64,000 bases of DNA from positions 60,823,567-60,887,566 of the forward strand of contig CM057227.1 of assembly GCA_029891385.1 (NCBI GenBank), read 5' to 3'. Both the position numbers and the translations under genes were made by a program. Positions 7,184 through 51,465 of the stretch are shown piece after piece (the stretch's first letter is position 1; each line of letters starts with the position of its first letter). Source of the DNA: Erythroxylum novogranatense. Its lineage: Eukaryota; Streptophyta; Magnoliopsida; Malpighiales; Erythroxylaceae. Under the pieces are notes generated by a model, which was not told the DNA's origin, did not search any database, and saw nothing but the letters and a program-made list of their open reading frames with translations.

Positions 7184-7405
7184 CTCCGCGGCGCAAGGTC
7201 ACTCGTCGCGGCGAGTTATCTCGCCTTCGTCGCGACGTACGCAAAGCTCTCCCACGGCGTGCTCACCTCTGCTCGTCGTGACGTGCGTCCTTGCTCGTCG
7301 CGACGTGCGGGAGGAATTGGCTCGTCGCGGCGCAGAATTAATTGCTCGTCGCGACGTCCAACTCTCCGTTCGTCGTGACGTCTAATTAATTACACGTCGC
7401 GACGT
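7184..7405. repeat. CG-palindrome array in the Chromo A 3' LTR
   Basis: About ten units of the type CGTCGCGACG / CGTCGCGGCG / CGTCGTGACG recur every 19-26 bp. They stand out from AT-rich surroundings. ACGTCGCGACGT at 7394-7405 is a perfect 12-bp palindrome. The equivalent in the other LTR lies at about 33896-34130, with several CG to TG or CA changes. Confidence 0.9.
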
Positions 7406-7787
7406 ACGAGCTCTGGTTCGTCTTCTCTAATCGACCTTCAACATTCTCTCTCTAAAAACCAGTATCAAACTACTCTCAACTACCCATTCTTACACAATAA
7501 ATACCATACATGCATCAAACAACAATAAATAACAACATTAAACCATTAAACTTACCAATCAAGCCTCAAATCCTTAAACCTCCTAAAATCTCCTCCAAGC
7601 TCTAACAACTACGGTGATCACCCAAAGCCAAACAAAACCTCATCATCCCCAAGGATCAAACAGAAGGAAGAAGCAAGCAACGATCGAAAGCTCACACCAA
7701 AAGGAGAAATCAAAAATCACCAACAGAGGGAAGAGGGATTTTTTCCCTAGGAGAAAAGAAGATACCCTTCTAAATTTCAAAACCTAG

Positions 7788-7799
7788 AGTATATATAAA
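7788..7799 (-). promoter_or_regulatory. Candidate LTR TATA box, Chromo A
   Basis: On the - strand TTTTTATATATACTC lies about 525 bp inside the LTR and precedes a pyrimidine/purine-rich leader. It is conserved as TTTTTATATATCC near 34505-34515 in the other LTR. The call rests on position and motif only. Confidence 0.45.
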
Positions 7800-8322
7800 A
7801 AGGTTTGATTTAAGCCTATAGATTATAGTCCTCAAATTCATCAAATTTCAGTCTCTAATTTCCAATGACTCAACATTCTCGTTCCTAAAATCACAAATTC
7901 TAATTCTCCATGCCATTTGCCCATCAATTTCAGAACCGAAATCTAATTTATCAGTCATCATGTCATTTTTTCAGTCCGGACATGAAACTCCAAAAAATTC
8001 CGGAAAAATTCCTATAAATCCTCAAAAATATATGACACATGTTCCTACACTCCGATTTCGATTTTCAACTCTTAAAAATTCAATTTCTCTCCAATCCTGT
8101 ATTCAAAACTTAATCTATGCAATTATCACCCAATTTCTAATTTACACAATTAAATCGGGAAATTGTCATACATGCGTGTACATACATATACTCGTGCAAT
8201 AATAATCATTTATCAAGAATTTATAGAGGCTAAATGCATGTGCAATTTAAATCATGCATGCACCCAGTCCTAATCCATCCGAATTACCAATATGCCCTTC
8301 ACATCTGTAACGGGATGTTACA

Positions 8323-8335
8323 ATTCTCCCCTCCT
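8323..8335 (-). other. Chromo A polypurine tract
   Basis: On the - strand AGGAGGGGAGAAT directly abuts the TG of the 3' LTR and is the expected plus-strand primer. It is also coding: it specifies the last residues of pol. Confidence 0.88.
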
Positions 8336-11933: not shown

Positions 11934-12145
11934 ACATCGCGGCGTGAACTAATCACCTCGCCGCGGCGAAATGTAACTCCCACATCGCGGCGCATCAACA
12001 CACGATCGTACGTCGCGACATCAACAATTCCCACGTCGCAGCGAGCAAGCCAGATCGTACGTCGCGACGTCAACAAATCAACACGTCGCAGCGAGCAAAC
12101 CAGAGCACACGTCGTGGCAAATATTAATTCGCATGCCGCGATTCC
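11934..12145. repeat. CG-palindrome array in E
   Basis: Nine units such as CATCGCGGCG, CGCCGCGGCG, CGTCGCGACG and CGTCGCAGCG start at about 11934, 11957, 11982, 12009, 12032, 12058, 12081, 12109 and 12132, roughly every 23-27 bp. ACGTCGCGACGT at 12059-12070 is identical to sites in Chromo A and LARD B. Confidence 0.88.
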
Positions 12146-14257: not shown

Positions 14258-14384
14258 TTTCCCTATCTATCTTTTGTATTGCCGACCTGTTGATGTCTTG
14301 TTAATACTTGTTTTAGCCAATCTTGCATTCTGTTAGTAAAAACTTGGTAAATTTAAAAATTTGCTGTCATTCTGCTATTCCTCG

Positions 14385-14470
14385 CTGTGGCGACAGGTCA
14401 CACACTGCGGCGAGGCTCATATTCATCGCTCAGACGTCATGGCGTGCATCTTTGCACGCTATGACGCCCA
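14385..14470. repeat. Second, decayed CG-motif array in E
   Basis: Units CGCTGTGGCGAC, CACTGCGGCGAG, CATCGCTCAGACG, CGTCATGGCGTG and CACGCTATGACG follow each other over about 85 bp. They resemble mutated versions of the array at 11934-12145. Confidence 0.55.
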
Positions 14471-14704: not shown

Positions 14705-15760
14705 GCGGTGCAATAAAAGAATGCGTGGAATCTGGATCTATCAAAGCATAAACCTCAAAGTCGGAAATCAGAAGCATACCCGCAACAACATCCGGAGAAT
14801 CCTGGGCCTCCTGCCTAGTCATGGCATAGACCCTGGCCTGGGACTGTGGTCGGCTGCCAAGACTCTCGGTCCCCGTAAAGGAATCTCCAGCTCTACCCCG
14901 AGCTCTGCCTCGGCCCCTGAATCCAGATCCACCACCGCAGCTCTGCTGCACTGTCATGCTACTACCAGCTCTCCCACTCTCAGCAGACTGAACTCCCAAA
15001 GTCATAGGGCAATTCCTAATCATATGATCCATGGAGTCGCATGCCAAGCAGGCTCCAGTCACTCTCCAAAGACTTCCATCCGCCCTCCGAAGATCTAAAG
15101 AACTCCGCCTGCACTTTCTTGACACTCCTACCAGAGCTGCCCTGACTGTCACTCGATCTCTTACCTCGATCCTCGCCGCCTCACTGACTCTATCTCGGTT
15201 ACTCAATCCAAGACCGCAGCAGCTCTCAACTCGACAAAGGTGCCAATATCAGACCGGGCTAACCTGGTACGGATCTCCAGATTAAGCCCTTCCTCGAATC
15301 TCCGGCACCTATCAGACTCTGTAGCAATCAGAACAGAGGCATAACTCATCAACTCATTAAACCGCACCTCATACTCAGCCACTGACATCTGACCTTGTCT
15401 CAACTCCAGAAACTCCTGCATCTTCATCTCCAAATAGACCTTGGGCATGAAATTATCCCGAAAAGCTCTCAAGAAGTCCTCCCATGTCAGAATACAGGGT
15501 CTGGTGGTACTACTCGGGACAGTCTTCCACCACTGATACGCTGGACCCTGAAGCAAAGAGACAACATAATCAAAGCACTCCTCAGAGTCGCAATCCATCT
15601 AATCTAGGACCCTCTCAGTCCTCTCTAACCATCCCTCAGCCTCAACAGGGTCTGTGCTGCCATAAAAGTCAATAGCTCCCTGCTTGCGCAGTCGATCATA
15701 CCTCCTTTCCCGTCTCATGGGAACCCTAGGAGGCTGCTCCTCAAATAGAGGCACTGAATG
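14668..15760 (-). pseudogene. Chromo A gag and N-terminal protease (broken)
   Basis: Reading down from 15760 on the - strand, the capsid core is recognisable (DFYGSTDPVEAEGWLERTER, then LLQGPAYQWWKT). An in-frame TAG at 15599 and a TGA at 15203 interrupt it, and a frame change near 15150-15205 leads into the nucleocapsid part. The zinc knuckle CLACDSMDHMIRNC fits CX2CX4HX4C. A Gly/Arg-rich linker follows, then the protease, where the active-site D(S/T)G reads DPD in ALIDPDSTHSFI, which should abolish catalysis. The frame then runs into E. The gag N-terminus is separated by LARD B and would lie at 32190-32300. Confidence 0.87.
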
Positions 15761-16440
15761 TTGGCCCCCGAATTATTGTATTGAATTAAGCACGATTATA
15801 ATTCAATTTAACTGAATTATGAGATTTGATGGATAAAGTTTTGGATCTATTTGTTATGTAAGTGTTGGTCGAATTTATTTTATGGTTTGGTTGTATTAAA
15901 AATGGTAAGAATGTATAAGGGTATTTTGGTCATGGCACTTAAGGTTATAAGGCCTAAGGCTTAAATGAAAGGGGCAAAATGGGCATTTGACAATTAAGAG
16001 AATTAAAAGAAGAAGAATTGAGAAAGAGGAAAGGAAGAGTTATCGTAGGGTGAGAAAGAAAAGAAAAGGGGAAAGGAGAGAAGAGAGGGAGAGTGTCGTA
16101 TGAAGAAGAAGAAGAAGAAGAAAAGAGGGGAAAGCTAGAGTCTTTGATTTTTGAAGGATTGAAGCCTTCCAAGTAAGTATAAGCTTCTTTTAATCTTGTT
16201 TTAGTTGGATTAAACCTTAGAATCGTTTTGTTTGAGGTTAGAACCGATTATGTAGGGTTTTCGGAAAAACCTAGATGAAATCGTTGGGTTGATGAGCTTG
16301 TGACTGATTTTGAGGTTTGATTGAGTTAAAAATGTAGTTTGAGACTTGATATAAGGTTTAGATGTGTTGCATTTGCGTTTGTGGAAGGATTGAAGTGAGA
16401 AAAGCTAGAAAATTTGGGGTTCGGGGTCGGTTCCCCGATC

Positions 16441-16650
16441 CGCACGTCGCGACGTGCTCTTGAGCACGCTGCGGCGTGCGAGGAGAAGTTTCGCCGCATC
16501 CATCCAGGGTGCACGTCGCGTTGTACAAAAGATTATGTGCACATCGCGGCGCACATGAAGGTGCACGCCGCGGCGAACGTCCATGCGTGCGTGCCGCAAC
16601 GCATGCGGATCGTTCGCCGCGGCGAGCGTGACCCTCGTCGCAGCGAACCC
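16441..16650. repeat. CG-palindrome array in the LARD B 5' LTR
   Basis: About nine units (CGTCGCGACG, GCTGCGGCGT, CGCCGCGGCG and variants) start near 16445, 16468, 16492, 16513, 16541, 16565, 16592, 16616 and 16636. CACGTCGCGACGTG at 16443-16456 is a perfect 14-bp palindrome. The 3' LTR counterpart (28390-28600) differs far more than flanking LTR sequence. Confidence 0.9.
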
Positions 16651-17442
16651 CCTGTTTCCAGTTATTTTGGTTATATCTTGGGATGTAGATATCCAAATGA
16701 GATGATTTTTGATTCATTGGAAAATAGAGTCAAAGTTTTACAAGATTTATGAAGCAATGAAATTGAAAGTCAGATTATAAGAATCTTAAAGTTTGGTCAG
16801 AAGTTGGGTATAGATTCCTGTTTCAGCAAAAGGATAGTCTTCACTTGTTTGGGTATAACTTTTGGGTTTTTGAACCAAATTGAATGCTTTTGGAGTCAAT
16901 AGAAATGTAAGACAATGAGGACTTTTATGGAAAAAGTGATCTGAATGTTTGGACTTTGGCAGAGTTGGGTTTGTTTAGAATTTATCTTAGTGAATGTGTG
17001 CTTTTTGGGTCCCTAATTTGTATTCCTATTTGAATAGGAATTTTGCATTTGATTAAGGGAATCAAGGAAGGCAAGAGGATCAAGATGAGAGGTATCTTTT
17101 ATGCATGTATCCGAGCAAAGATTTCAGGTGGGTTTCATGTTTATGATTTAGTAATGAGCCACTAAATTTTTCTCCCAAATCAAGAATCATTTCAATTTCT
17201 TTATAAATATCGTTTTGTTTCGATTGAATGATTTGCAAAAATTTCTACATGTTTCAGCATTGAACTTTTCTAATGAATTTCAAAAATAGAGATGAAAATG
17301 CATTGAACATTTTATGTCATGCCTTGGGAAAATTCATGGCATTTTGTATATTCGGAAAAGAAAGAATAGAGCATGAAAAGTACGAAAGCTTCGATAAAAT
17401 GCTTTGAGCATAAAACGAATGGATATGTGCTTTGTTTGGGTA

Positions 17443-17530
17443 AGAGAGTTACGGATGGAGTCACGTGCACATTGACATAAAGCTTTCTCCTGGCTGCCTG
17501 CTTGAGGCCACGAGATCCTTGAGAAATCAA
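17443..17530 (+). promoter_or_regulatory. Conserved LTR module 1 (G-box bearing), LARD B
   Basis: GAGAGTTACGGATGGAGTCA is followed by CGTGCAC and then a CTTTCTCCTGGCTGCC block. The module recurs in solo LTR D (23697-23800) and, inverted, in LARD C (about 41830-41880 and 48050-48100). CACGTG is a plant G-box; a regulatory role is inferred from conservation only. Confidence 0.6.
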
Positions 17531-17840
17531 ACTCGTTTTGTTTACGGATTTACCTTCGATTTATCCGGATCGTTTACGGAACTCTCGAGCCGTTTGTTTG
17601 TGCATTGCATCTATGAATTGTCAAGTATGTGCATAAATTGAGCATTTTATATTATTGATTGAATGAATATGTTGTGTTGATGTGATGACATTTTTCACTA
17701 TGAAATTACACTTTTCAATTACGAGATTGACTCAGAATTTGACTGAGAATTTGGGAGCAAAACGTTTTATGAACTTATTATGATTTTTGTACAACAAATG
17801 AAATTTTTCAACGGTTTTGCTTGTTCTTCATTATAAACTT

Positions 17841-17910
17841 GTTACCCACGAGCTATAAGCTCACCCCCCCCCCTTCATTCCCATCCACAGGTGATGAGAA
17901 GAAGATCGGG
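17841..17910 (+). promoter_or_regulatory. Conserved LTR module 2 (poly-C), LARD B
   Basis: GTTACCCACGAGCTATAAGC, a run of C, TTCATTCCCATCCACAG and GTGATGAGAAGAAGAT are shared with D (24105-24182) and, in diverged form, LARD C (41470-41560, inverted). The C-run length differs between copies. The function is unknown; the CACAG|GTGATG step resembles a splice acceptor. Confidence 0.55.
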
Positions 17911-18523
17911 TGAAGGGAAGTGAAGGTTTCGATTTATATGTGTACTTATTATATTGTTCTAAGTTAAATTGGTATTGGAAATTTTGGGATCGGTATATTT
18001 TGTATATTTGGATTTAGATATTGATACTGTATTGTGGCTTGGTATTCCATGAGAACTTGTAAATTCTATTCCTTGATGTAAATGAATTATGTATGGCTGA
18101 TAACCAATGGAAGTACGCATTTGTGTAAATGGACCAGATGGAGTGAGAAATTGGTTTACTTGAGGGAGTTATGATTATGATATGATTTTTGGATTGTGAA
18201 TTTTGGTTATACATATGTAATTATATACCACAACGAGGTGTGTTATGGAAAAAGGAATGTAGAAATGAAATGAGATTGTAAGCTTCACGATTTCGGTGGT
18301 ATACACCAACGTTTTGGTTCAATGGTCGGATTCCGAGTTCGGGGCTCATCATGTTTAGTAGCAGAGTAAGAAGAGATTTCAGCGAACCATGCTTTAGTAT
18401 AATGGTATTTTGTACCGAGGTTAGGTTCGAAAAATGGAGCCCAACATTTGCGGTATCAAAGCAGGTTAGTAAGTGTTATGGTTTTGGTTTGAGTTGGATT
18501 CTAGAAACGGAGTCCAACATTTG

Positions 18524-18537
18524 TGGTATCAGAGCCC
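18524..18537 (+). other. LARD B primer-binding site
   Basis: TGGTATCAGAGCCC starts five bases after the CA of the 5' LTR and matches initiator Met tRNA. The following leader (to about 18610, with CATGGGCG and GGTTACACGCATAA) is shared with LARD C. Confidence 0.9.
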
Positions 18538-20447: not shown

Positions 20448-20560
20448 TCGCGTGGTCGATCGCTCGGCAGCAGGCGATCGCTCGGCAGCGAGTGCCCGCG
20501 TGAATCGCTCTGCAGCGAGCGCCCGCGCGCGCGCGAGCGACCCGCTCGGCAGTTGGTCAA
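20448..20560. repeat. GATCGCTCGGCAGC array in solo LTR D
   Basis: Units GATCGCTCGGCAGC (20458), GATCGCTCGGCAGCGAG (20476), AATCGCTCTGCAGCGAG (20503) and CCGCTCGGCAG (about 20540) form a short GC-rich array, with a (GC)n-like tract at about 20523-20535. The layout resembles the palindrome arrays of the other elements but the core differs. Confidence 0.75.
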
Positions 20561-20724
20561 TCGACCCACGGGGTAGAATTTCAGCCGACCGACCTCTCTT
20601 CTTTGTTTTGGCCATAACTTCTTCGTCCGACATCCGATCAACCTGATTTTCAAAGCGTTGAATTTCTAAGACATTTTTCTATCTTTTCATACTATATTGA
20701 TCAGTTTTGGAATTAAATTGAAAA

Positions 20725-21600: not shown

Positions 21601-21738
21601 ACATAGAGGGACATTTCTCTAAAGTTTTTAAGGCAAAAAGGAAGGGGCAATTTTGGAAGTTTACTTAAAGGGGTTAAGTTTATACGCTTAAATGGAGGGG
21701 CATATGGGTCATTCCCCATTCATTAAATGACATGGCAA

Positions 21739-21746
21739 TATAAAAG
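21739..21746 (+). promoter_or_regulatory. Candidate TATA box, solo LTR D
   Basis: TATAAAAG is followed by a purine-rich leader-like stretch, as in plant LTR promoters. It would give a U3 of about 2.45 kb. Confidence 0.5.
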
Positions 21747-28389: not shown

Positions 28390-28600
28390 AGATCCGCACA
28401 TCGCGGCGTGTGAGGAGAAGTTTCGCCGGGTGCATCTAGGGTCCACGCCGCGGCGTGCTAAAGATTATGTGCACGCCGCGGCGCACATGAAGGTGCACGC
28501 CGCGGCGAACGTCCATGCGTGCGTGCCGCGGCGCATGCGGATCGTTCATGCATGGCGCCTAAGTGGTCGTTCGCATGGCGAAAGATGGCCCTCATCGCGC
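28390..28600. repeat. CG-palindrome array in the LARD B 3' LTR
   Basis: Units include CATCGCGGCG, CGCCGCGGCG (three times) and TGCCGCGGCG. Compared with 16441-16650 one unit is missing near the start, several cores differ (GCCGCGGC against GTCGCGTT), and the right end is rearranged. Confidence 0.88.
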
Positions 28601-30380
28601 AAACCCCTGCTTCAAAGAATGATGAATTTTGTTATTTTGGTTATATCTTGGGATGTAGATATCCAAATGAGATGATTTTTGATTCGTTGGAAAATAGAGT
28701 CAAAGTTTTACAAGTTTTATGAAGCAATGAAATTGAAAGTCAGATTATAAGAATCTTAAAGTTTGGTCAGAAGTTGGGTATAGATTCTGTTTTAAGGATA
28801 AGGATAGTCTTCACTTGTTTGGGGTATAACTTTTGGGTTTTTGAACCAAATTGAATGCTTTTGGAGTCAATAGAAATGTAAGACAATGAGGACTTTTATG
28901 GAAAAAGTGATCCGAATGTTTGGACTTTGGCAGAGTTGGGTTTGTTTAGAATTTATCTTAGTGAATGTGTGCTTTTTGGGTCCCTAATTTGTATTCCTAT
29001 TTGAATAGGAATTTTGCATTTGATTAAGGGAATCAAGGAAGGCAAAAGGATCAAGATGAGAGGTATCTTTTATGCATGTATCCAAGCAAAGATTTCAAGT
29101 GGGTTTCATGTTTATGATTTAGTAATGAGCCACTAAAGTTTTCTCCCAAATCAAGAATGATTTCAATTTCTTTATAAATATCGTTTTGTTTCGATTGAAT
29201 GATTTGCAAAAATTTCTACATGTTTCAGCATATGAACTTTTCTAATGAATTTCAAAAATAGAGATGAAAATGCATTGAACATTTTATGTCATGCCTTGGG
29301 AAAATTCATGGCATTTTGTATATTCGGAAAAGAAAGAATAGAGCATGAAAAGTACGAAAGCTTCGATAAAATGCTTTGAACATAATCGAATGGATATGTG
29401 CTTTGTTTGGGTAAGGGAGTTACGGATGGAGTCACGTGCACGTTGACATAAAGCCTTCTCCTGGCTGCCCGCTTGAGGCCACAAGATCCTTGAAAAATCG
29501 GACTCGTTTTGTTTACGAATTTACCTTAGGTTTATCCGGATCGTTTACGGAACTCTCGAGCCGTTTGTTTGTGCATTGCATCTATGAATTGTCAAGTATG
29601 TGTATAAATTGAGCATTTTATATTGGTGATTGAATGAATATGTTGTGTTGATGTGATGACATTTTTCACTATGAAATTACACTTTTCAACTACGAGATTG
29701 ACTCAGAATTTGACTGAAAATTTGGGAGCAAAACGTTTTATGAACTTATTATGATTTTTGTACAACAAATAAACTTTTTCAACGGTTTTGCTTGTTCTTC
29801 GTTATAAACTTGTTACCCACGAGCTATAAGCTCACCCCCCCTTCATTCCCATCCACAGGTGATGAGAAGAAGATCGGGTGAAGGGAAGTGAAGGTTTCGA
29901 TTTATATGTGTACTTATTATATTGTTCTAAGTTAAATTGGTATTGAAAATTTTGGGATCGGTATATTTTGTATATTTGGATTTAGATATTGATACTGTAT
30001 TGTGGCTTGGTATGCCATGAGAACTTGTAAATTCTATTCCTTGATGTAAATGAATTATGTATGGCTGATAACCAATGGAAGTACGCATTTGTGTAAATGG
30101 ACCAGATAGAGTGAGAAATTGGTTTACTTGAGGGAGTTATGATTATGATATGATTTTTGGATTGTGAATTTTGGTTATGCATATGTAATTATATACCACA
30201 ACGAGGTGTGTTATGGAAAAAGGAATGTAGAAATGAAATGAGATTGTAAGCTTCACGATTTCGGTGGTATACACCAACATTTTGGTTCAATGGTCAGATT
30301 CTGAGTTCGGGGCTCATCATGTTTAGTAGCATAGTAAGAAGAGATTTCAGCGAACCACGCTTCAGTATAATGGTATTTTG

Positions 30381-32365: not shown

Positions 32366-32370
32366 CCTAA

Positions 32371-35036
32371 TGTAGCGCCCCCTTACTGTAGGGTATGCAC
32401 CGAGACGCCCGTAGGTCGTTCCGATATATAACCCACAATGAGAGTGCACTACGAACGATCAATTCTATAAACCTTATGGCATCAATATAATTTGAACTGC
32501 AATATCCACATTTCTGAATTTTTAAAAACCAAAATTCTTTCATTTCATAACCTTAAAACAGAATTTACAAGTCTATTAGTTTCCATAAACTATACAGATA
32601 TTTCCCAAAAAGGAACTGAAACAAAATCCTAAACTAGGTCATCCCTCAAAATCAACCCCAGCTGACCGACCTGTGAGCCATACTTCGCTTGCCAGCACTC
32701 ACACAGCGGGAAAAGTCGAACCTTGGAGCTAAAAGCCTACAATCGCTATCCTGAAAAATAATTGCAATGTTGGGTGAGTTTGCGAACTCAGCGAGAAACC
32801 ATCATCGATGGTCCACCCAACTCATGCATATACACACAGTTCATATTATATCATGTATTATCACAACCAGAGAATCACATGCATTCAATTTCACATTTAT
32901 AAGGCGGTTCGCCTTTCATACAATTCATATTTGAACATTCATATATGCGATGTACATGTGACTCTTTCATTTTATTTCGTTGTTGTGACTGCACGCCTAA
33001 GCTCATTAACGTTGAGCCAGTGGCTCTGAATTTCGTTGGGCTTGAAGCCCTAATACATTGAGCCTGTGGCTCTAAAATCGTTGGGCACGAGACCCTGATG
33101 CGTTGAGCTTAAAGCTTTGAAATACGGTGGCTGCACCGGTCACAACTGTCTTTATCTGATCATACCTTTATGCATGTATGCACATGTCCAATTTACAATA
33201 CTTGTGTCACGATAAAATTCCATATGTTTAATTTCGCATTTAAAGCCAATTAATTTCAGTTAATGCACCTACAACACTTCTATATCACATTCCAAATGTT
33301 TCAGACACCTTTGGTCCGAAATCAATCAAAAGCAAGCACACAGATCTATCCTTAACTCCACATGGCATAGATACATAAATGTAACACATACTGGTTGAGA
33401 AACCAACTAGGTTACTCACCTCTGAACTTCTGAGCTACTGCCGGGAAGTCTCAGCTATATCGGACGATCGACGGTCCACTTGCGCCTCTAAAACAAATCA
33501 AAATAATCACCCATTACTAATTGTACAATTTCTAATATTCAATAATGCATATGCAGCGATTGAATTATGTACTGTACATGTTTATGACATTCCCGAATCT
33601 TCTCAATTCAACTCTTTCACTCTAATTCATAACAATTCCTAATACCATAATTCAATTTACTAAATGATGAGCTCTCTTAAGTCCAATTCCAAATCATAGT
33701 AATTATCTTTAAATCAAAATCAAATTCACTATTCAATCACCACCCGATTTCGAGAACCACCAAAATAAATTCCAAATTTCTATTTTTATAAATTCACAAT
33801 TCTTAGTCCCTATAATCAAGATCGATCCATCCCTAACCACTCCATTAAGAATTAACCCTCAAATATCATCACTTAAACATTCGGAAATCAGCTCCCTCGT
33901 CGCGATGCAAGGTTGCTCGTCGCAGCGAGTTATCTCACCTTCGTCGCGACGTATGCGAAGCTCTCCCACGGCGTGATCGCCTCTGCTCGTCGTGACGTGC
34001 ATCCTTGCTCGTCGCGACGTGCAGGAGGAATTGGCTCGTCGCGGCGCAGAATTAATTGCTCGTCACGACGTCCAACTCTCCGTTCGTCGTGACGTCTAAT
34101 TAATTACACGTCGCGACGTACGAGCTCTGGTTCGTCTTCTCCGATCGACCTTCAACATTCTCTCTCTAAAAACCAGTATCAAACTACTCTCAACTACCCA
34201 TTCTTACACAATAAATACCATACATGCATCAAACAACAATAAATAACAACATTAAACCATTAAACTTACCAATCAAGCCTCAAATCCTTAAACCTCCTAA
34301 AATCTCCTCCAAGCTCTAACAACTACGGTGATCACCCAAAGCCAAACAAAACCTCATCATCCTCAAGGATCAAACAAAAGGAAGAAGCAAGCAACGATCG
34401 AAAGCTCACACCAAAAGGAGAAATCGAAAATCACCAACGGAGGGAAAAGGGATTTTTTCCCTAGGAGAAAAGAAGATACCCTTCTAAATTTCAAAACTTA
34501 GAGGATATATAAAAAGGGTTTATTTAAGCCTATAGATTATAGTCCTCAAATTCATCAAATTTCAGTCTCTAATTTCCAATGACTCAACATTCCCATTCCT
34601 AAAATCACAAATTCTAATTCTCCATGCGATTTTCCCATCAATTTCAGAACCGGAATCTAATTTATCAGTCATCATGCCATTTTTTCGGTCCGGACATGAA
34701 ACTCCAAAAAATTCTAAAAAAATTCCTATAAATCCTCAAAAATATATGACACATGTTCCTACACTCCGATTTCGATTTTCAACTCTCAAAAATTCAATTT
34801 CTCTCCAATCCTGTATTCAAAACTTAATCTATGCAATTATCACCCAATTTTCAATTTACACAATTAAATCAGGAAATTGTCATACATGCATGTACATACA
34901 TATACTCGTGCAATAATAATCATTTATCAAGAATTTATAGAGGCTAAATGCATGTGCAATTTAAATCATGCATGCACCCAGTCCTAATCCATCCGAATTG
35001 CCAATATGCCCTTCACATCAGTAACGGGATGTTACA
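32371..35036 (-). repeat. Chromo A 5' LTR
   Basis: This 2666-bp copy is collinear with 5719-8322. It retains the 73 bp around 32749-32822 that the other copy lost. Its CG-palindrome array is at 33896-34130 and its TATA-like site near 34505. Confidence 0.95.
33896..34130. repeat. CG-palindrome array in the Chromo A 5' LTR
   Basis: This is the same array as 7184-7405. Differences are mostly CG to CA/TG (for example CGTCGCGATG and CGTCGCAGCG), which fits deamination of methylated cytosines. Confidence 0.88.
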
Positions 35037-35041
35037 TATAA

Positions 35042-40246: not shown

Positions 40247-40951
40247 TCACCTGTCGGAACCCGACCCGGAGACCGGACCCCAACTGTTAGATCCAAGACC
40301 CAACTACATGGAACTTACACTTATCACATTTGATCTAATACCACAGATGTCAGACCCCGCTCCCGGAGCCCAACTTTCGTAGTCCTGAAACCTTATGCTT
40401 ATAACCTTGCAGAATTCTTAACTGTGACTCCACCTTCGAGGCGAGTGCACACTACTTAAACATCACAAATACATATTGACTTGTTCATATCAAATATAGC
40501 TTGAAGCCTCACGCTCGTATAGAGGCAAGAATCACCTTGATCGGAGTTATATAACTCAAGATATGCATCAAAAACCTAAAGGAGTTCATAACTGAAACAT
40601 GCTCTCTTAACCAACCATTCACGTACTTTTATGTAAAATTCTTCAATTTAACTTAAAATGATACCAAATTTTGTGGAAAGAAAGATGTATGTCTTAGGAA
40701 ACTAATGGTTCAAGCCTCACCTCAATTGGAGGTCGGGTGGGGTAGTTATGCTCAAAAGAAACAAGTATGTTCATGTCCTAAATCGGTTCGAACCTCTTTT
40801 AGCGCGATTTCTATAACTTTCAATGTATAACTCATAATTCTTTCGTTTTTGCACCATTAGAAAGTAGACATCTAGATCTACAACTTTCATGAAGACCACG
40901 AAACGAGATTCAGCCCTAACATTTTCAAAAATCACCAACTTTCTCAATCAT

Positions 40952-41065
40952 AAGTCGACATACACTAACATACAACTTGACTTATACATACAAACAAGTC
41001 GACTTATGCTTCACAAGTCGACTTATGGGGGTCGACAAGTCGACTTATGCTTCACAAGTCGACTT
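40952..41065. repeat. AAGTCGACTT palindrome array, LARD C 3' LTR
   Basis: Units lie at 40952, about 40974 (mutated), 40996, 41015, 41037 and 41056, spaced 19-22 bp, with an extra GTCGAC at 41031. Each intact unit is a perfect 10-bp palindrome. The copy in the other LTR is at 47173-47285. Confidence 0.9.
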
Positions 41066-41829: not shown

Positions 41830-41885
41830 AATCGGGCAGCCGGGCGAAGGCTTTCATGGTCGACGTGCACGTGACGGTTCTTAGG
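41830..41885 (-). promoter_or_regulatory. Conserved LTR module 1 (G-box bearing), LARD C
   Basis: On the - strand CCGTCACGTGCACGTCGACC is followed by AAAGCCTTCGCCCGGCTGCC. The same order of blocks is found in LARD B and D. Confidence 0.6.
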
Positions 41886-42760
41886 ACTATACCTTACCCA
41901 CATAACACAACAATCATGCATCATACAAGAAAATTTGACTGTTCTTGTCCAATTTTCCATTCCTTTAAAAATCATCTTTGTCATACATCATTCATGCTTT
42001 TCATCATATTCATTTAACAAGTTTCTCCAAAACAACTTCATTCGCCATCATACAATGTACATTTATAAGCATCATAATTTCATACTCATTTAGGCTATTT
42101 CATTCAATACTAGCTCAACCATCATCAAATCATCAACATGTATCATTTTCATTTACACAAAACTCATGATTAATGATATCTAACCACTACTATCACAAGC
42201 ATTTAATACAATCATCAAGTAATCAAAACTCATTAATGTCATGCATTAATTTACATTTATAGCTTATATACATAAAGATAAATATGAAACCCACCTTTTA
42301 TCCTTGCTTAAACTTGCCTAAGGAAGTTCTTCCTCTTATTGTTCTTCTCCTCTTTCTTGCCCTTCTTGAATCATAACAAGAAAGTAACCTCATATTACTT
42401 AGGGTTTCAAAATTGAGAAATCTCATAAACTTTAATCATGAAATTAACCCTAGAATCACTAAACCCACTTCATTTCTAAGCTTTCTAAACCATAACTCAA
42501 GCAAAAGCTTAACCTTGAAAACATGACTTACCTTGAATCTTGACTAAACCAAAGGGTTTCTTAGCTTAAAGTGTAGCTTGAACCTTCCTCCACACTTTTT
42601 CTTCTTGCACTTTCTTCAAAAACCCACTTGAATCTCTTGGAAAATCAAAACCTAAGCAAGCTCTTCTTCTTTTCTCCTCCACCACCGAAACTTTCTCCCT
42701 CTCCCTTTGATTTTCGTAAATCTCCTTTCTTTTCCCTACACCAATTCATTTAACTCCTTC

Positions 42761-42768
42761 CTTTTATA
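42761..42768 (-). promoter_or_regulatory. Candidate TATA box, LARD C LTR
   Basis: TATAAAAG on the - strand lies about 425 bp inside the LTR and is followed by purine-rich sequence. Confidence 0.5.
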
Positions 42769-43189
42769 CTTCCTCCTAACTCACTTAAGCCCATTAACCT
42801 AAGGCCCATCTCATTCCTCTTCTTTCCTTCTTCCTTCCTTCTTATCTTCTTTAACCTACTCAAACCCAAAGCCCAAGTCCACTTCATTTCCTCCTCTTTT
42901 CTTCTTTTACTTCCCTACTACATTAAAGCCCATTTCATATATATCCTCTCTTCTTTTTATTTCATTTGGACCCAAAGCCCCATTTAACACATTAAATTAC
43001 CTCTAATTCATTTAAACCAACTAACACATTTAATACTTGCTATCTAACTCATTTAATCACATTTATTCATTACCTAACTCATTTAATGTCATATGCTAAT
43101 TCATGCTAACTTTATTAAATACTAAATTAATTCACCCCATTAATCTAATCATGCTTGATCTGTCATAAAAAAAAATTCTAGGGGTAACA

Positions 43190-43203
43190 TTTCTCCCCCC
43201 TTA
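43190..43203 (-). other. LARD C polypurine tract
   Basis: On the - strand TTAAGGGGGGAGAAA abuts the LTR start TGTTACCCC. Upstream, AATTTCGAGGACGAAATTTC reads like a Tekay pol tail (FEDEIS) now followed by a stop. Confidence 0.85.
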
Positions 43204-46200
43204 AGAAATTTCGTCCTCGAAATTCTTACCTTACCCCACTTGCTTCCTCTTGCACTCTTTGTGTCACCATTTTACTCCATCATTCCTAAGCTTTCTTTCA
43301 AATGACCTTGGATAACGGATTTAAACAATCCCTTTTTAAATGCTACAACATCTTATCTATTTCTTCCATATTCTTCAAATTAGTCAAAATTTTATTTCTC
43401 ACTTCAACAACCTATCAATCTTCTTAACATACCCTTACTCGAGCTTGGGCACACCTTGGCATGGTGGTATTCATAAACATGTACTCATATGAGTATAAGC
43501 GTATAGCTCGAGAGTATCACAAAGAAAATTTGTCTTATGCTTAATGACTCACAACAGTAGTAGTGCCAGTATTTGTATGCCAACACACTTAATTCTCATG
43601 CCTATTTTTACCCAAGTTTCATGCCTCGACATCGATCCTCCTAATTCATTCATCTTTCTCATTTCACTTAATTCTTATTATTTGTCCATTTCACCTGTTT
43701 AAGACATCTCTAATTCTAGCCTTCAAAGACTTGCAAGCCTTACTCAACCATAAGACAAAAACAATGACTCATTCTATTATCTAAGTTCTCATACAAGTGT
43801 TCACCTAAACTCCCTAGGGCGGTGACTTTTGTGCTAGGGTCAAAAGACTATACTTGGATCTCATGTTCCTAAGAACCTCAAACGATATGTTTTAAACATA
43901 TTCTTGCTAATTACGACTATCAATTCAAAACTTCACTTGCTTACTTTGACATTTTTAGTCACTAAAAAGGTCTTTCAATGTATCCCTACTAGGATACGAA
44001 ACTTATGCCACAAATTTTTATTTTTTATTTTACTTGCAATCTCTTCATCTTTATTGATTTCACACACTCCTTATTTCATTCACGATGTATCATTCTTCTC
44101 ATTCGAACTCGAAATTCAGATCTGCTTTCAATCTCTTAATAAGGTTCAAAATCTCATAATCCTCAATTTGGGCTATACTTATTTACATGTTAAGCTTTCT
44201 TTCACTCTAGTTTTGGTGATCATAAAATCAAAGTTACACTTAACATATCTGAATATAACACTTAGCCTTACTTGGAAAATCTCACTTGTACAATTATAGT
44301 CTTTTGGTAATTATGTCAATCTCCGGGTCTTATATTTAATTCTCCCAATTCAGTGATTGTCTCATACTTGTTCGATCTGTACTTGCATATGTATATCTAA
44401 GATGTCTCTGCATATACTGTCTCCAAAACTTTCAAAACAATCATATCAATTAAGTAAGACTTGAGTTGTCTCCATACATATGAAATCACTTTGCTACACC
44501 GCATTGGATTTTAGCCAAATGTCTTACACAACATCGGTTGCATTTCATAAAATCTTCAAATCTATATGTAATATATGATATAGTCCACATCAAGATAATT
44601 CTTTCAAAATTCTCTTTACTTACATTACTAATACGCTTTACACATTTTCTTCATGTATTCAAACGATTTTCTCCATTCCTTGAATATCCTTAATACATCA
44701 TCAAATCTCTCTTGATTAGCCCTCGTGATTTCCTTAAACAACTGCTTCCTCAATGAGGTACATTGTCTCACTTTCTTTTCCATTTCCCCCTATTAACTTC
44801 CTTCCGCAAATGATCTTCTCTATTTCTTGCATTTCATCAATCCTCACTTGGACTCACTATCATGTTTGCTCATCCCTACCAATTTCTCCACCCATTGCAA
44901 TCTATTTGAAAATTTAACTTTTGGTGATTTTAATACATTCCTCAAGTCAGATTAGTTCCTCCCAAACATATTTTCACATAACATGTGCTTATATATTCCT
45001 CATACTAGCAATCCATGTCTTCTTAAATTCAGAAATCCACTTATGTGATCCTTTACATCAACCTCGATACATACTTTCGAATCATTATATTTCCTTCCCA
45101 ATCAGTTCTTTCATCGATCACTCTTAATATAAGCCTATCTAATCTGCTTATTCTAACTTAATAAAATTCTGATGAAAGGGGGGTTTCTTGCTACCATTAT
45201 CTATGCTATTTATGCAATCTTGATCAAAACCTATTATCCTCCTTATCAACTATTCTTAATACCTTGGGAAGACCCATTTCTATCATCCTCATAAGGTTAT
45301 AAGGTTCAAGTCACTCAAAACTCAATGGAGTAAAAGAACATACTTGCTGTTGCATATGCTTGGGGGGCATCATCAAATTCAACCCATTTTGTTCACTTGC
45401 TTATCTCCACCAATTCCCTAACTTGTCTCTTACATGATTGATATTTTGATCTTCATTAATCCTAGAAAATATTCTTCTTTTGATCCTTTGACTTTATTTC
45501 TCATTGTAGTATCGTCAACAATTTTCCATCAATCTTGACGATCATTGTGAACACTTTCATGTGTCACTGCATTTCCTTAGGCTCTAAACTATGGGAACTA
45601 TGACTAACAAATATTTAATGAGTCATAGGGTTTTATATATCTATCCTATACTCACTTGTGTATGATGATAGATCATTATATAACTACTCACAATAGCTAT
45701 CAATTTAACCGTCACGGACTTGTATTTAACATTACTATCATTCATCACATCTTCCCATTTCTTCCCATTACATTTTACATATATTGATATTAACCATTTG
45801 TTCGAACTTATAGATGAAAATCATCACACAATTCACATATCAAACATGTAGCAACTTCTCAATGCATTCAAGGCACAATTTATGCAACAATCGTGATGCA
45901 ATTTAAATTATTCATAAAGAATCGTCGTAATAATTGAAAAGATTTCTTAGATCATTCGAAAACCATGAACTTGACAATTCATAAATCATTTGGAAAACAA
46001 TAACTTATAAACATGCTTATTTTCTTAATTTTCTTGAAAATACATTAAGGGCTCATTACTTAAATTATAAACATGAAAACCCACTTAGGTTCGGTTTCAT
46101 CTTGGAAGACCATATGCATCTCTTTTTCAAAACACTTTACTTGTTCACTTCAAGCTCAACATTTCCACTCACATCCTCGATTTCCCCAAACAAGCCATGA

Positions 46201-46461
46201 TCATACATTTTCATCGAAATCACATTCAAAGGTATACCATCATAATGCCACACACTGCATCCCCCACTAGAAATACATTGAATCATTACCTATCATCTTT
46301 GACCATGTACTATTTCTCATTTCCATGTATCCATAGCTTTGCATTTTCTAATATCATGAAACAATATCACCTTGCGCACTAATTCAAACGGCCTAAACCC
46401 TTAACAATTACTTATGTGTGTAACTTATACACCCACGCCCATGTAAGATCTCAATTCCGGC
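43204..46461 (-). other. LARD C interior, non-coding
   Basis: About 3.3 kb with no gag, reverse transcriptase or integrase motif in any frame. The 131-residue frame at 43904-44299 is antisense to the element and has no family resemblance. Blocks near 43440-43690 and in the leader (46390-46461) are homologous to LARD B at the same relative positions. Confidence 0.8.
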
Positions 46462-46473
46462 GCTCTGATACCA
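46462..46473 (-). other. LARD C primer-binding site
   Basis: On the - strand TGGTATCAGAGC lies four bases after the 5' LTR end. The following CGCCGGAATTG leads into a leader shared with LARD B (CATGGGCG, then GTTACAC-CATAA). Confidence 0.9.
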
Positions 46474-46557
46474 CAGATGTCGGAACCCGACCCGGAGATC
46501 GGACCCTAACTGTTGGATCCAAGACCCAACTACATGGAACTTACACTTATCACATTT

Positions 46558-46569
46558 GCTCTGATACCA
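46558..46569 (-). other. Relic primer-binding site inside the LARD C LTR
   Basis: TGGTATCAGAGC occurs on the - strand 96 bp inside the LTR, preceded by an LTR-end-like CTCCGGGAGCAGGGTCTACA. It repeats the layout of the true LTR/primer-site junction. The 3' LTR has a mutated copy at 40332-40343. Confidence 0.75.
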
Positions 46570-48360
46570 CAGATGTAGACCCTGCTCCCGGAGCCCAACT
46601 TTCGTAGTCCTGAAACCTTATGCTTATAACCTTGCAGAATTCTTAACTGTGACTCCACCTTTGAGGCGAGTGCACACTACTTAAACATCACAAATACATA
46701 TTGACTTGTTCATATCAAATATAGCTTGAAGCCTCACGCTCATATAGAGGAAAGAATCACCTTGATCGGAGTTATATAACTCAAGATATGTATCAAAAAC
46801 CTAAAGGAGTTCATAACTGAAACATGCTCTCTTAACCAACCATTCACGTACTTTTATGCAAACTTCTTCACTTTAACTTCAAAACCCAATTTTGTGGAAA
46901 GAAAGATGTATGTCTTAGGAAACTAATGGTTCAAGCCTCACCTCAATTGGAGGTCGGGTGGGGTAGTTATGCTCAAAAGAAACAAGTATGTTCATGTCCT
47001 AAATCGGTTCGAACCTCTTTTAGCGCGATTTCTATAACTTTCAATGTATAACTCATAATTCTTTCGTTTTTGCACCATTAGAAAGTAGACATCTAGATCT
47101 ACAACTTTCATGAAGACCACGAAACGAGATTCAGCCCCTAACATTTTCAAAATCACCAACTTTCTCAATCATAAGTCGACATACACTAACATACAACTTG
47201 ACTTATACATACAAACAAGTCGACTTATGCTTCACAAGTCGACTTATGAAATCGACAAGTCGACTTATGCTTCACAAGTCGACTTATTCTTACATCTGAC
47301 TTGCCTCTACACTCTCCTAATCAATCCCAAACACCATGAACACTTCTAATCTTACCAACTTATCCATTCCATGTCAAAACACTCCTTAAAGATTTAACAC
47401 TTATATCAACTCATTAGTTTCTCAAACTTCAACTCATGTATTACATGGCATCTTGCAATACCTATAATTCCGTAAGATACATGAAATTAACAATGTAAAA
47501 GCTCCCATTGACATAAACATACATGCATTTTATTTACATCAAAACCAATGTGTTACAATGCTTTAATAGGCATTTCAAGCCCATTTACAAAAAAATATCC
47601 AAACTACTACATTTGCCTAAAATGCACCTAAAGCATTGATGTCCAAAAAAAATCATTTCAATCACAAAACCAAAAGAAAACTCTTGGAGTAAATGCCTTC
47701 AAGCTTGCTCCTCGAGATCCTGCTCATTTCCTGGGGAATTTGAGGGGTGAGCTTTAAACTGTGGGTAACACATTTATATTTATATAACAAGCATGTCCAT
47801 TTAATCATTCATACTTTTAGCAATCTTTCAATGAAGTCATGATAGATACATCATGCAATTTTCATCAATACATAAACATAATTTCTCACAATTCAATCAT
47901 TCATAATTCTTGCACTTTCATGTTATCACGTATGAAACACATCAAATGGCTTGGTAAGTCCATATTCTTGGCAACCATATAGTCTCATTTAATGAGGTTA
48001 TATGGGCAAATCTTGAGGAGTCCAAAATAATGGATCATCCTATGCCACAATCGGGCAGCCGGGCGAAGGTTTTCATGGTCGACGTGCACGTGACGGTTCT
48101 TGGGACTATACCTTACCCACATAACACAACAATCATGCATCATACAAGAAAATTGGACTGTCCTTGTCCAATTTTCCATTCCTTTAGAAATCATCTTTGT
48201 CATACATCATTCATGCTTTTCATCATATTCATTTAACAAGTTTCTCCAAAACAACTTCATTCGCCATCATACAATGTACATCTATAAGCATCATAATTTC
48301 ATACTCATTTAGGCTATTTCATTCAATACTAGCTCAACCATCATCAAATCATCAACATGT

Positions 48361-50184
48361 TGTTAGAGTAGTGCCCTAAAGGCAATCCCCTTTAGCGCTT
48401 TTTGTTCATAGTCATGTACAGACTTTATGAATAAATAAAGAAAGGCATGTTTCATTTATTTGATGTTCTTTATGAATTGATATTGATCTTTAATCAAATT
48501 AATGAAGTCCATGATATATGACATAGCATGAAGGAAATTATGATGTGATCATACTCCTGAGATTCCTATCATGTGCAATTATGTCAGTATCTAAATTTTT
48601 CCTAGTCATAGGATTAATGAGACTGGACATCATTAATCCTACAGACTAGCATATGTCATACTCCTTGATTGGATCAGCAGGTGGATCTCGAAACGTAAAT
48701 ATGAGATATTTAGAGTTGACATATGGATGCTTACTAGCGGTAGTAAGTTCATTGGATGACTCGCCATGAGATCATCACATGGATTTAATGTCGATGATAA
48801 TCTCATCATAGCAATGGTGCAAGTATCCTTAGACTTGAGGTACTCGAGGATATCTTGAATCTTGATCCTGTACTTTTGACTCCATTCCTTGTGGCCTTCA
48901 GAGGTTACTCATAGGGTGGTGCTTGGAGTGCGTTTGAGGTATTGAAGGTAATTGAGTAGCCAATAAAGGATTCATCACTTGTGAGAATGAAGAGATACCT
49001 GACCTCTTGTCGGGATCATTACTTTAAGTCTCGGCGAGCATGACTATGTCATGAAGAGTGTCTTCATGGACATATAAAGTAATGAGTCCTCGACAGAATC
49101 GATTTCACTTGGGCTAGACTTAGTCTAGTAAGAGTTGACATATTAGCCATACTCATAACCAAGTGGGGTATAGGATGATGAAAGGACGAATTGCACAGTA
49201 ATTGTTTATGGAAGGGTTCGTGATCTGGTTCGTGATGAATTCATCAAACCAATTACTTTCCGGTCAATTGGGGGTCATGATGTGTTGCTAGATACCGCTC
49301 ATGACTTGCTCAGATTAATTGTTAATCTAAGTGGCCAACATAACCGGGAACCTAAAGGGTCACACGCATAAGAGTGACTCAGAGAATCTGTAAAATAGTA
49401 ATTGGACAGAGTTCCAATTATGAAGAGCATTAAGATTAAATGGATCCCAATGGGATTGGGATATGTCCCGATGAGATCGCGACATCAATATTGCTAAGAA
49501 AGGTTTCCGGAGCTATTTCATATCTGAGCCCGGTAGGCCGGTAGGACCGACCCCAGTTTGACTGGACCTCTTCAGCAAATATATATATATATATTAATTA
49601 ATTAAGAATTAATTAATTATATATATAAATGTTGAATTTCGTGGAACCAAAAGATGGAGAGAAAGATGTGAGTTTGAAAAGTCAAAGCTCATCATCATTT
49701 AGCATTTTAAGGCATTTTATGCCTTCTACGTGGATGCCTATCCACCAAGCTTCTAATATGTGTTTTAAGTGTTAAAAATACATAGAAGAAGCATTGAAAA
49801 AAAGCTTGGTCGTGGGTTTGAGAAGAAGAAACGATATGCTTAATTGTTAAGCTTGGAAAATTGGTTTTCATCTTCTTCATCTCTTCCATTCAAGATTCCT
49901 TCCACTCTCCAAGACTCCACCAAGATCATTTCTCAAGATCTCCAGGACAGAGGTAGGGTCTAGCAGGCTTTATTCTGTTCTAGCTATTCCCGGGTCAAAA
50001 GGGTTTGACTCGGTTAGGTTTTCTGATCTCTGCGTGGATACCTTTAGAGATAGTCTTTATTAGCTATTCAGGTTTGAGTTTTCATACCGACACCGGGATC
50101 CTGGGTTTTCGGGAAGGTCCCGGGACTAAAAATTTTTGTTTCTGCTGCTGGAACATGTGATGTTCCTCCCGGGATTTTCCTACA
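48361..50184 (+). repeat. Copia B 5' LTR
   Basis: The 1824-bp LTR matches 56117-57910. It includes a long AT-only inverted repeat at 49578-49628. It ends CCTACA one base before the primer-binding site. Confidence 0.94.
49578..49628. repeat. AT-only inverted repeat in the Copia B LTR
   Basis: A TATATATA/TTAATTAATT arm is mirrored around AAGAA, giving a near-perfect hairpin of about 22 bp per arm. The counterpart is at 57322-57369. It includes TATA-like sequence and may overlap the LTR core promoter. Confidence 0.75.
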
Positions 50185-50185
50185 G

Positions 50186-50197
50186 TGGTATCAGAGC
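50186..50197 (+). other. Copia B primer-binding site
   Basis: TGGTATCAGAGC, initiator Met tRNA type, one base after the 5' LTR. Confidence 0.92.
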
Positions 50198-51298
50198 GTT
50201 TGGTGTCGTGTATGAAGCTTTAACTGAAGCTAGATCATAAACCCTAATTGCTTGTGATGTTGATGCATGCTTGCTGTCCAATTTTCGAATTGCTATAGAG
50301 ATAGGGTTTTCGAAAATTTTCTGCCCAGGATTGTTCATAACATGTTATAGAATATGTCTATGAATTTTCAGAATTTATCTATTTGATTTGATATAGTTTT
50401 GCTAATTAATTCCCTAAGGTTCCAGATGCTGTTTTGTGAAACACTCTGTGGACAGGCAGTAGTATAAAATCGAGAATAAATTCTAGAAAAATATTTTTCT
50501 GGATTTTCCTTCATCTACATGTCTCTAAGATGTTGGTGAATGTCTGTGAGCATGGAAATTGGATTTCAAGGTGATTGGATATTTATTCACGAATTTATTC
50601 TATACTGTTGGGAATTGCTGTGCTGATGAACACAGTTTTTGAATCGGTTTTGTTATTTTGGTTGACTATGTTTTTGATGGCCTAAAATCCTGAAAAAATT
50701 CAGGTAGCATTTTCTGAACATTTAGTAACCTATATAATTTTCTCATGATTTATTGAAATTGTTTCATTGATCATTTCGAGCAATGTACAGAACTGGACAG
50801 TTTTGATGAAAATTGTTGGGACTGTTTTGCTTGGCTTGATTGAGTGTGCTTTTTCAATTCCAATGCCTTGCACCATTTTTAATGTGATTAAAAATGTGTT
50901 ATCTTGATGTGGTATGATTGCCAAAGTGAATTGCTTGAAGTTGCTTTTCCAAGAATTTTTGAATGCCGAATTGGTCACATTTGTGTCTCGTTAGTATATT
51001 TCATTTTCTTGCTTGTTTTGGCCGTCACAATTTTTGTGACTAGAGCCGGAGTAGTTTTGAGAGTGTATACACTAGCTTGAGATGCTTAGGGTGATAATTT
51101 GGGTGTTCCTAAATTATTTGAAAATCTTAGAGTTATGACTCATTTTAAGCTTTTCATGTATGGTTTGACCATATAAGGCATTCATGGATCAATGAAGTGT
51201 TCATTGATACATCTATTTACGAATATTACCCTAGGTATGATGGTATTGTGAATTGGAATTGCATGGATTGAGAAATTAGCGATTAGAAAGTAGGGCGA

Positions 51299-51465
51299 TT
51301 CGATCGACTAGAACATGTTCGATCATTGGAAAGTGTCTGATGATTAATTCGAATCATTAGAACATATTCGGTCATTGACCGAACGCAGATACCCTTTAGT
51401 CGACTAGCTCAAGTTCCAGTCGACTGGCACATGTACCAGTCGACTAGAACATGCACCAGTCGACT
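51299..51465. repeat. AGTCGACT palindrome array in the Copia B leader
   Basis: AGTCGACT occurs at 51398, 51418, 51438 and 51458, exactly 20 bp apart, with partly conserved spacers (GAACATG, GCACATG, CACCA). Upstream, GATCGACTAGAACATG and TCGGTCATTGACCGA-like sequences look like older, mutated units. Confidence 0.88.

What the first reader, a model, noticed from the sequence alone, without database searches (positions are those of the whole stretch)
7184..51465. Unrelated retroelements share the same architecture: 20-27 bp arrays of CG-centred palindromes in the LTR or leader
Seen directly: arrays at 7184-7405 and 33896-34130 (Chromo A), 11934-12145 (E), 16441-16650 and 28390-28600 (LARD B), 20448-20560 (D), 40952-41065 and 47173-47285 (LARD C), 51299-51465 (Copia B). 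Cores are TCGCGA/CCGCGG in A, B and E, GTCGAC in C and Copia B, GCTCGGCAGC in D. ACGTCGCGACGT is identical in A (7394), E (12059) and B (16444), although these use different primers and families. Spacing is near two DNA helical turns. In A, C and Copia B the arrays lie downstream of the candidate TATA box or in the leader, so they would be transcribed. Inference: repeated recruitment of a DNA- or RNA-binding host factor, a methylation/silencing target, or sequence exchange between elements. I know of no described feature type that covers this.
Basis: partly seen in the sequence, partly recalled or inferred. Interest (0 to 1): 0.85.

Follow-up and report, generated by a model that had tools for sequence, protein, structure and literature searches.

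The report
Swappable palindrome arrays in retrotransposon LTRs
Many jumping genes of the coca plant carry, at a matching place in their control region, a row of short, mostly mirror-symmetric DNA words whose spelling differs from one lineage to another, which looks like an exchangeable docking address for a DNA-binding protein not yet identified.

Summary
The arrays are real and far above chance, but the framing changes. The genome is coca (Erythroxylum novogranatense). Neighbouring exact CGTCGCGACG units number 6,214 genome-wide against 0 for the reversed pattern and 3 for a permuted palindrome; AAGTCGACTT neighbours 59,268 against 0. Mixed neighbours, searched in one narrower form, gave 2 places, so arrays look class-pure. 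The gypsy-type bearers are not unrelated: A-like relatives, B, C and D share a homologous ~80-bp block just downstream of the array (65 hits, 0 in reversed sequence). The array thus fills one homologous LTR slot, in which different motifs occur: TCGCGA, AAGTCGACTT, GCTCGGCAGC, others, some not palindromic. Copia B is the one bearer seen to share a motif class without that slot. In A-like LTRs a splice-donor-like GGTAAG (23 of 25) lies ~140 bp before the array, suggesting a leader intron. CpG decay in A and B arrays is like that of their flanks, suggesting methylation of silent copies. Best reading: class-specific arrays of sites for a dimeric DNA-binding factor. Sirevirus palindromes and VANC target arrays are close precedents, so 'no described feature type' is wrong.

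The parts
33896..34130 (-). TCGCGA-class array, Chromo A 5'LTR (9 units)
7184..7405 (-). TCGCGA-class array, Chromo A 3'LTR (9 units)
32371..35036 (-). Chromo A 5'LTR (TSD TATAA); primer site next to it at 32354-32365
5719..8322 (-). Chromo A 3'LTR
34132..34272 (-). pre-array block (25 copies found, each abutting a TCGCGA array, some decayed)
7418..7558 (-). pre-array block, 3'LTR copy
34264..34271 (-). splice-donor-like TGGTAAGT, ~140 bp before the array
   Evidence: 23 of 25 loci keep GGTAAG
34505..34511 (-). candidate TATA box of Chromo A
   Evidence: inference from alignment
32749..32829 (-). conserved 85-bp block with hairpin-like arms, ending TTTTTCAG|G (acceptor-like)
11934..12145 (-). 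TCGCGA-class array in insertion E (8 units); strand inferred from relative L048
16441..16650 (+). TCGCGA-class array, LARD B 5'LTR (8 units)
28390..28600 (+). TCGCGA-class array, LARD B 3'LTR (5 units found)
15759..18519 (+). LARD B 5'LTR (TSD CTGAA); 3'LTR is 27710-30382 plus 32075-32189
16171..16178 (+). donor-like AAGTAAGT upstream of the B array
16665..16742 (+). post-array block, B 5'LTR
28635..28712 (+). post-array block, B 3'LTR
20448..20560 (+). GCTCGGCAGC-class array (D)
20606..20684 (+). post-array block after D; further copies at 20782, 20973, 21162, 21352 and 21536 (~187-bp tandem)
40952..41065 (-). AAGTCGACTT-class array, C 3'LTR
47173..47285 (-). AAGTCGACTT-class array, C 5'LTR
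40677..40757 (-). post-array block, C 3'LTR, 195 bp from the array (second copy 40508-40570)
46898..46978 (-). post-array block, C 5'LTR
51398..51465 (+). AGTCGACT-class array in the leader of Copia B, downstream of the primer site at 50186

Best explanation
The arrays are lineage-specific clusters of binding sites for sequence-specific, probably dimeric, DNA-binding protein(s). They fill one homologous slot in the LTRs of a large gypsy-type retroelement assemblage, and in A-like elements the slot is probably the 5' part of a leader intron. Units multiply and turn over by tandem duplication while the symmetric core is kept in replicating lineages. Now and then a lineage's array is replaced by one of another class. 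By position and analogy the bound factor most likely boosts, or protects from silencing, transcription from the LTR promoter, as VANC targets do and as is proposed for Sirevirus and Tnt1 repeats. Shown: the arrays, near absence of mixed neighbours in the form searched, the shared slot, different motifs in that slot, and CpG-to-TpG/CpA differences between LTR pairs. Inferred: intron, methylation, protein binding, and the sign of the effect.
For: Like neighbours 59,268 and 6,214 genome-wide against 2 mixed places for a narrower pattern. Homologous post-array block next to different motif classes: a profile trained only on 18 A-like copies still finds it in B, C, D and in L007, L009, L023, L026, L049, L051. 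L023, A-like over three stretches of its LTR, has AAGTCGACTT instead of TCGCGA. C-like LTRs hold AAGTCGACTT, AAATCAGA or GTCCGTTAAACGGAC-like repeats. Symmetry: the inner bases of the TCGCGA core co-vary (T..A and C..G over T..G and C..A, odds ratio 3.3, p 2e-5; 3.4, p 0.004 in units with all CpGs intact; related units inflate this), with no strand bias of decay (C>T 53, G>A 59), as expected of a double-stranded DNA target. Core identity exceeds spacer identity in 9 of 9 pairs of different subfamilies (for example 0.86/0.68, 0.77/0.49) and in 0 of 5 pairs of recent copies (for example 0.93/0.93, 0.85/0.97). CpG o/e is 1.5-2.0 in TCGCGA arrays against 0.6-0.9 in the rest of the LTR or insertion.
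Against: No factor, expression, binding or methylation data. Aligners anchor on cores and units were defined by the core, so favour this reading by design. Some slots hold repeats that are not palindromic (L007, L024; L006 at a distance), so symmetry is not required. By my rule 13 of 49 examined slots gave no array (2 of these are decayed TCGCGA and L009 is a palindrome run of 5 units). The window's own A copies gave no post-block hit. Most arrays fold strongly as RNA, so an RNA role is open. C and Copia B arrays are partly plain tandem repeats. Single AGTCGACT units are not enriched. Class purity alone could follow from tandem duplication.
Confidence: 0.5

Rival explanations
1. RNA-level signal: the array lies in the 5' leader of the genomic RNA, just 3' of a splice donor, so only unspliced RNA carries it. 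Self-complementary units would drive RNA dimerisation or packaging of like with like, as psi/DIS sequences do in retroviruses (comparison recalled).
For: Position in the leader in A-like LTRs (inferred) and Copia B. Nine of ten arrays folded have sense z -2.6 to -14.2 (60 shuffles each); D is about 0. AAGTCGACTT units in sense carry U..G outer pairs (23) over C..A (4), which only RNA pairing tolerates. Class purity fits homotypic pairing.
Against: The TCGCGA class shows no strand bias: C>T 53, G>A 59; x..y TG 37, CA 45. Antisense folding is as strong or stronger in some arrays (A: z -7.1 and -7.2 against -4.7 and -5.0). The U..G bias comes from 8 arrays: 6 lean to it (2 of them on one unit) and 2 lean the other way (1 of them on one unit). 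Non-palindromic arrays occupy the same slot.
Confidence: 0.2
2. Silencing landmark: self-complementary CpG-dense units are templates for 24-nt siRNA and RdDM, as reported for maize Sirevirus LTR palindromes; the element keeps them only because they are also its promoter.
For: Arrays hold 31-40 of 87-102 CpGs of the LTR or insertion in 8-9% of its length (A, B 5'LTR, E). CpG decay inside A and B arrays is 0.21 and 0.28 against 0.25 and 0.26 outside. Sirevirus precedent (passages).
Against: Decay in arrays is not above that of the flanks; C shows 0 of 6. It does not explain why cores are kept across lineages or differ between them.
Confidence: 0.15
3. Neutral minisatellites: the slot is prone to tandem duplication, and the palindromes are only what happened to be duplicated.
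For: TRF calls C and Copia B as 19-22 bp tandem repeats; non-palindromic arrays in the same slot; B 5' and 3' arrays differ in the number of units found.
Against: In A, B and E spacers differ while cores persist. Besides the two exact classes, three more (D, L009, L026) are palindromic or nearly so by eye. The same AAGTCGACTT core recurs in C-like, A-like and copia leaders.
Confidence: 0.12

Closest known systems
Sirevirus palindromic repeated motifs (Bousios 2010, PMC2829016: passages and one named section read; Bousios 2016 Genome Res not held, known here only from passages in PMC5311732 and PMC10760457)
   Same: Clusters of short palindromes with dyad symmetry in LTRs, bordering CpG islands, sequence differing by element, proposed cis-regulators; small-RNA hotspots in maize
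   Different: There a feature of Ty1/copia Sireviruses, nearly all with a CGG-CCG signature, shown upstream of the TATA box. Here gypsy-type LTRs (and one copia leader), TCGCGA and GTCGAC cores, in A-like elements downstream of a TATA-like box and probably intronic, with different motif classes in a homologous slot
VANC target arrays of VANDAL transposons (PMC5735166, passages read)
   Same: Short motifs accumulated by tandem repeats in non-coding parts including introns; targets vary between related elements
   Different: VANDALs encode the binding protein VANC (that they are DNA transposons of the Mutator type is recalled); no such gene was shown here; the motif YAGTATTAY is not a palindromic CpG core
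Tnt1-type subfamily-specific U3 repeats (recalled; a review passage on U3 variability seen in PMC10794571)
   Same: Variable regulatory module between conserved LTR parts
   Different: U3 position and copia elements (recalled)

Membership tests
Sirevirus palindromic RM | Element is a Ty1/copia Sirevirus | tested here: not met
   Chromo A has gypsy-order PR-RT-RH-IN plus a chromodomain match just under its cut-off; Copia B lineage not assigned, B, C, D, E not typed by protein
Sirevirus palindromic RM | CGG-CCG core signature | tested here: not met
   Cores are CGYCGCGRCG and AAGTCGACTT
Sirevirus palindromic RM | At least 8 copies per element | tested here: inconclusive
   Per LTR or leader: A 9, E 8, B 8 and 5, C 5, Copia B 4
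Sirevirus palindromic RM | Cluster upstream of the TATA box | tested here: inconclusive
   A-like: TATA-like box upstream of the array in 22 of 25, i.e. the other order; other families not settled; no transcript data
Sirevirus palindromic RM | Small-RNA hotspot | not testable with these tools
   No small-RNA data held
VANC target array | Short motif in tandem repeats in non-coding DNA, differing between related families | tested here: met
   mixed neighbours rare in the form searched
VANC target array | Carried by a VANDAL element that encodes VANC | tested here: not met
   Bearers A, B, C and Copia B are LTR elements with primer sites and target duplications; no binding protein was identified, and none was searched for by profile
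Simple minisatellite | Whole unit repeated, core and spacer alike | tested here: not met
   A, B, E: spacers differ in sequence and length; C and Copia B partly meet it
Retroviral-type dimerisation/packaging signal | Needed for RNA dimerisation or packaging | not testable with these tools
   Only folding and strand-bias proxies

The most novel reading that the evidence does not exclude
Coca LTR elements carry an exchangeable 'address' cassette in a leader intron: a class-pure array that assigns the element to one of several trans-acting factors (host or element-encoded, of anti-silencing type). Lineages switch factor by replacing the array, and two superfamilies (gypsy and copia) have converged on one address, AAGTCGACTT, which sits at tens of thousands of neighbour pairs in the genome.
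Probability: 0.25. Interest if true: 0.85.

Novelty: new variant of a known kind. Interest (0 to 1): 0.6.

Why it matters
If right, it gives a sequence-readable record of how retrotransposons change the regulator they obey: same slot, different word. It extends palindromic LTR arrays beyond copia Sireviruses to gypsy-type LTRs, and offers two exact motifs (CGTCGCGACG, AAGTCGACTT) with which to fish out the factor and to test whether it activates or silences.

Tried and rejected
'Unrelated families': rejected for A-like/B/C/D by shared blocks. 'One recent conversion event': rejected, because arrays occur in flanks that are about 66-98% identical to one another. 'Two helical turns': the TCGCGA mode is 24 bp. 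'Different primers': wrong for A, B, C and Copia B. RNA-pairing constraint on the TCGCGA class: no strand bias. Rfam: no match in the window at gathering scores. Proteins translated from arrays, to find other species: no hits, so spread beyond coca is untested. Literature: the listings (capped lists) showed no report of these arrays; most subscription papers are not held. The permuted control AAGACGTCTT and the exact mixed pattern AAGTCGACTT-CGTCGCGACG did not complete, so AAGTCGACTT rests on its reversed control only, and class purity on one pattern that takes only S units followed by A on the inner side. My first clustering joined nearly all TCGCGA loci at a loose cut-off; I re-did it with wider masking, where A-like and B-like still join by single linkage. 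Dropped before counts: the 3-unit run at 14383-14435; 15 downstream-duplicate hits and 1 short one of 65; 5 arrays without known orientation and 9 repeated units. L001-L004 and L029-L052 were picked because they hold arrays, so slot tallies are not unbiased; L005-L028 (four 50-kb blocks and four 10-kb pieces on eight contigs) were taken at random positions.
Full report
What was checked. The window lies at G000:C4:60823567-60887566 of a 1.30-Gb genome. A pol relative in Erythroxylum novogranatense sits on a contig of 111,140,549 bases (P0043), the length of contig C3, so the host is coca. All nine intervals hold the reported repeats. I call the two main classes T (CGYCGCGRCG) and S (AGTCGACT, mostly AAGTCGACTT).

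Elements. Chromo A is coded on the minus strand: gag and PR pieces at 15598-14577, the rest of PR at 11758-11390, RT/RH and the integrase zinc domain at 11098-9428, integrase core at 9421-9080, and the SH3/chromo end at 8764-8318 (integrase core and chromo scores are under their cut-offs). Its LTRs are 32371-35036 (5') and 5719-8322 (3'), target duplication TATAA. LARD B is 15759-32189, plus strand, duplication CTGAA. C is minus strand, 40252-58934, duplication TCACC, its 5'LTR split by Copia B (48361-57910, duplication CATGT). A, B, C and Copia B have a TGGTATCA[G/A]AGC primer site.

Chance. Exact CG-centred runs: 3 against a mean of 0.02 in 50 local shuffles. In 240 kb from random positions, 8 T arrays and 3 S arrays of at least 3 units were found and no array of the reversed words; but single S units (55) are not above the reversed word (71). 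Genome-wide, like neighbours with 5-20 bp between cores: T 6,214 against 0 reversed and 3 for a permuted palindrome of the same composition; S 59,268 against 0 reversed. S next to T, for S units followed by A, gave 2 places; the fully matching mixed pattern did not complete. Among the listed first places some recur with identical spacers 3.7-17.7 kb apart, as two LTRs would (for example C1:7357362/7363948 and 1857480/1864372).

One slot, several words. With arrays masked, 20 of 20 T loci picked from the first places fall by single linkage into the component that holds A and B (17) or into E's (3). A 147-bp stretch of the A LTR just before the array gave 25 hits, each abutting a T array, some decayed. 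An ~80-bp block just after the array, seeded from L023, gave 65 hits and 0 in reversed sequence. Trained without window copies it finds B, C and D in the window (E 1.8e-11, 8.2e-15, 4.3e-13). Trained on 18 A-like copies alone it still finds B, C, D, L023, L049 and L051. The window's own A copies gave no hit; 21 of the 25 pre-block loci did. It begins 15-50 bp after the array in B, D, L023 and L049, and 195 bp after it in C. Of 49 slots examined, my rule scored 23 T, 5 S, 8 other and 13 none. Of the 8 'other', 3 are degenerate T and 5 are other classes (D; L026 twice; L007; L024). Of the 13 'none', 2 are decayed T, and L009 holds five GTCCGTTAAACGGAC-like palindromes. L023 matches the A LTR over three stretches (90% over 82 bp, 72% over 216 bp, 81% over 48 bp) with AAGTCGACTT where A has TCGCGA; the pre-array block was not found in it. 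C-like LTRs hold S (C, L051), AAATCAGA (L007), GTCCGTTAAACGGAC-like (L009) or, a few hundred bp further off, TCTCAGTT (L006, L007).

Place. In the 25 aligned A-like loci a TATA-like box (22), a CT-rich leader and GGTAAG (23; GGTAAGT 21) precede the array, the donor 136-143 bp before the block end. The 85-bp block near the LTR end (16 copies) ends TTT..CAGG in 10. GTAAGT also lies upstream of the array in 4 of 5 aligned B-like LTRs, two of them from element B. I infer a leader intron holding the array; no RNA was seen. Copia B's array is in its leader, with no donor-like site within 700 bp upstream.

What is conserved. Of 255 distinct oriented T units (chosen by at most 2 mismatches, so partly by construction), the CpG positions of the core are 89-96% conserved; flanks are directional (often A before and AGCG after), so only the 10-bp core is symmetric. 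The inner pair co-varies (odds ratio 3.3, p 2e-5, inflated by relatedness). Decay is strand-symmetric (53 against 59). Core identity exceeds spacer identity in 9 of 9 subfamily pairs and 0 of 5 recent pairs (alignment bias noted). LTR pairs show CpG decay at 9 of 43 CpG positions in the array and 17 of 69 outside in A, 10 of 36 and 14 of 54 in B, 0 of 6 and 4 of 34 in C. So silent copies are probably methylated there as elsewhere, and something keeps the CpG-rich cores in the replicating lineage.

RNA side. Nine of ten arrays fold better than 60 dinucleotide shuffles (sense z -2.6 to -14.2; D about 0), mostly on both strands. S units in sense have U..G outer pairs 23 to 4 over C..A, from eight arrays: a hint for RNA in S, absent in T.

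Known relatives. Sirevirus palindromic motifs (PMC2829016, passages and one section; passages of PMC5311732 and PMC10760457) and VANC targets (PMC5735166, passages) show that palindromic LTR arrays and motif-changing arrays in introns are described. What seems new is gypsy-type LTRs, a homologous slot with different classes, a probable intron position, and one class shared with a copia leader. Spread beyond coca is untested.

Noticed in passing
32749-32829 (-), 16 copies incl. L020, L021, L048: 85-bp LTR block kept at ~83-96% identity in aligned relatives while its surroundings diverge; hairpin-like arms (TGGGTG/CACCCA, AACCATC/GATGGTT, TGAGTT/AACTCA) then a polypyrimidine-CAG end. No Rfam match in the window. 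Deleted from Chromo A's 3'LTR.
   Followed up: partly
20606-21616; 40508-40757; L007 5523/5709; L026 3624/3807/3974: The post-array block itself recurs in tandem at about 167-204, mostly near 187 bp, close to a nucleosome repeat length (recalled); the 190-bp tandem repeat of D contains this block.
   Followed up: partly
20351-20423 (-): An inverted copy of the post-array block lies on the other side of the D array, so that array sits between two facing copies.
   Followed up: no
A 5'LTR position 2061 (window about 32971-32976): An AATAAA lies between the putative donor and acceptor, so that poly(A)-like signal would be intronic.
   Followed up: no
1-64000: Deep nesting: a copia element (LTR copies 1-1141 and 36846-37987) holds Chromo A, which holds E and B, which holds D; C holds Copia B.
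   Followed up: partly
14383-14435: A second, decayed 3-unit TCGCGA run near the other end of insertion E.
   Followed up: no
60568-62240: Leucine-rich-repeat gene pieces, the host-like coding found among the frames that I scanned.
   Followed up: no
46569 (-): A second primer-site-like TGGTATCAGAGC about 100 bp inside the LTR of C.
   Followed up: no
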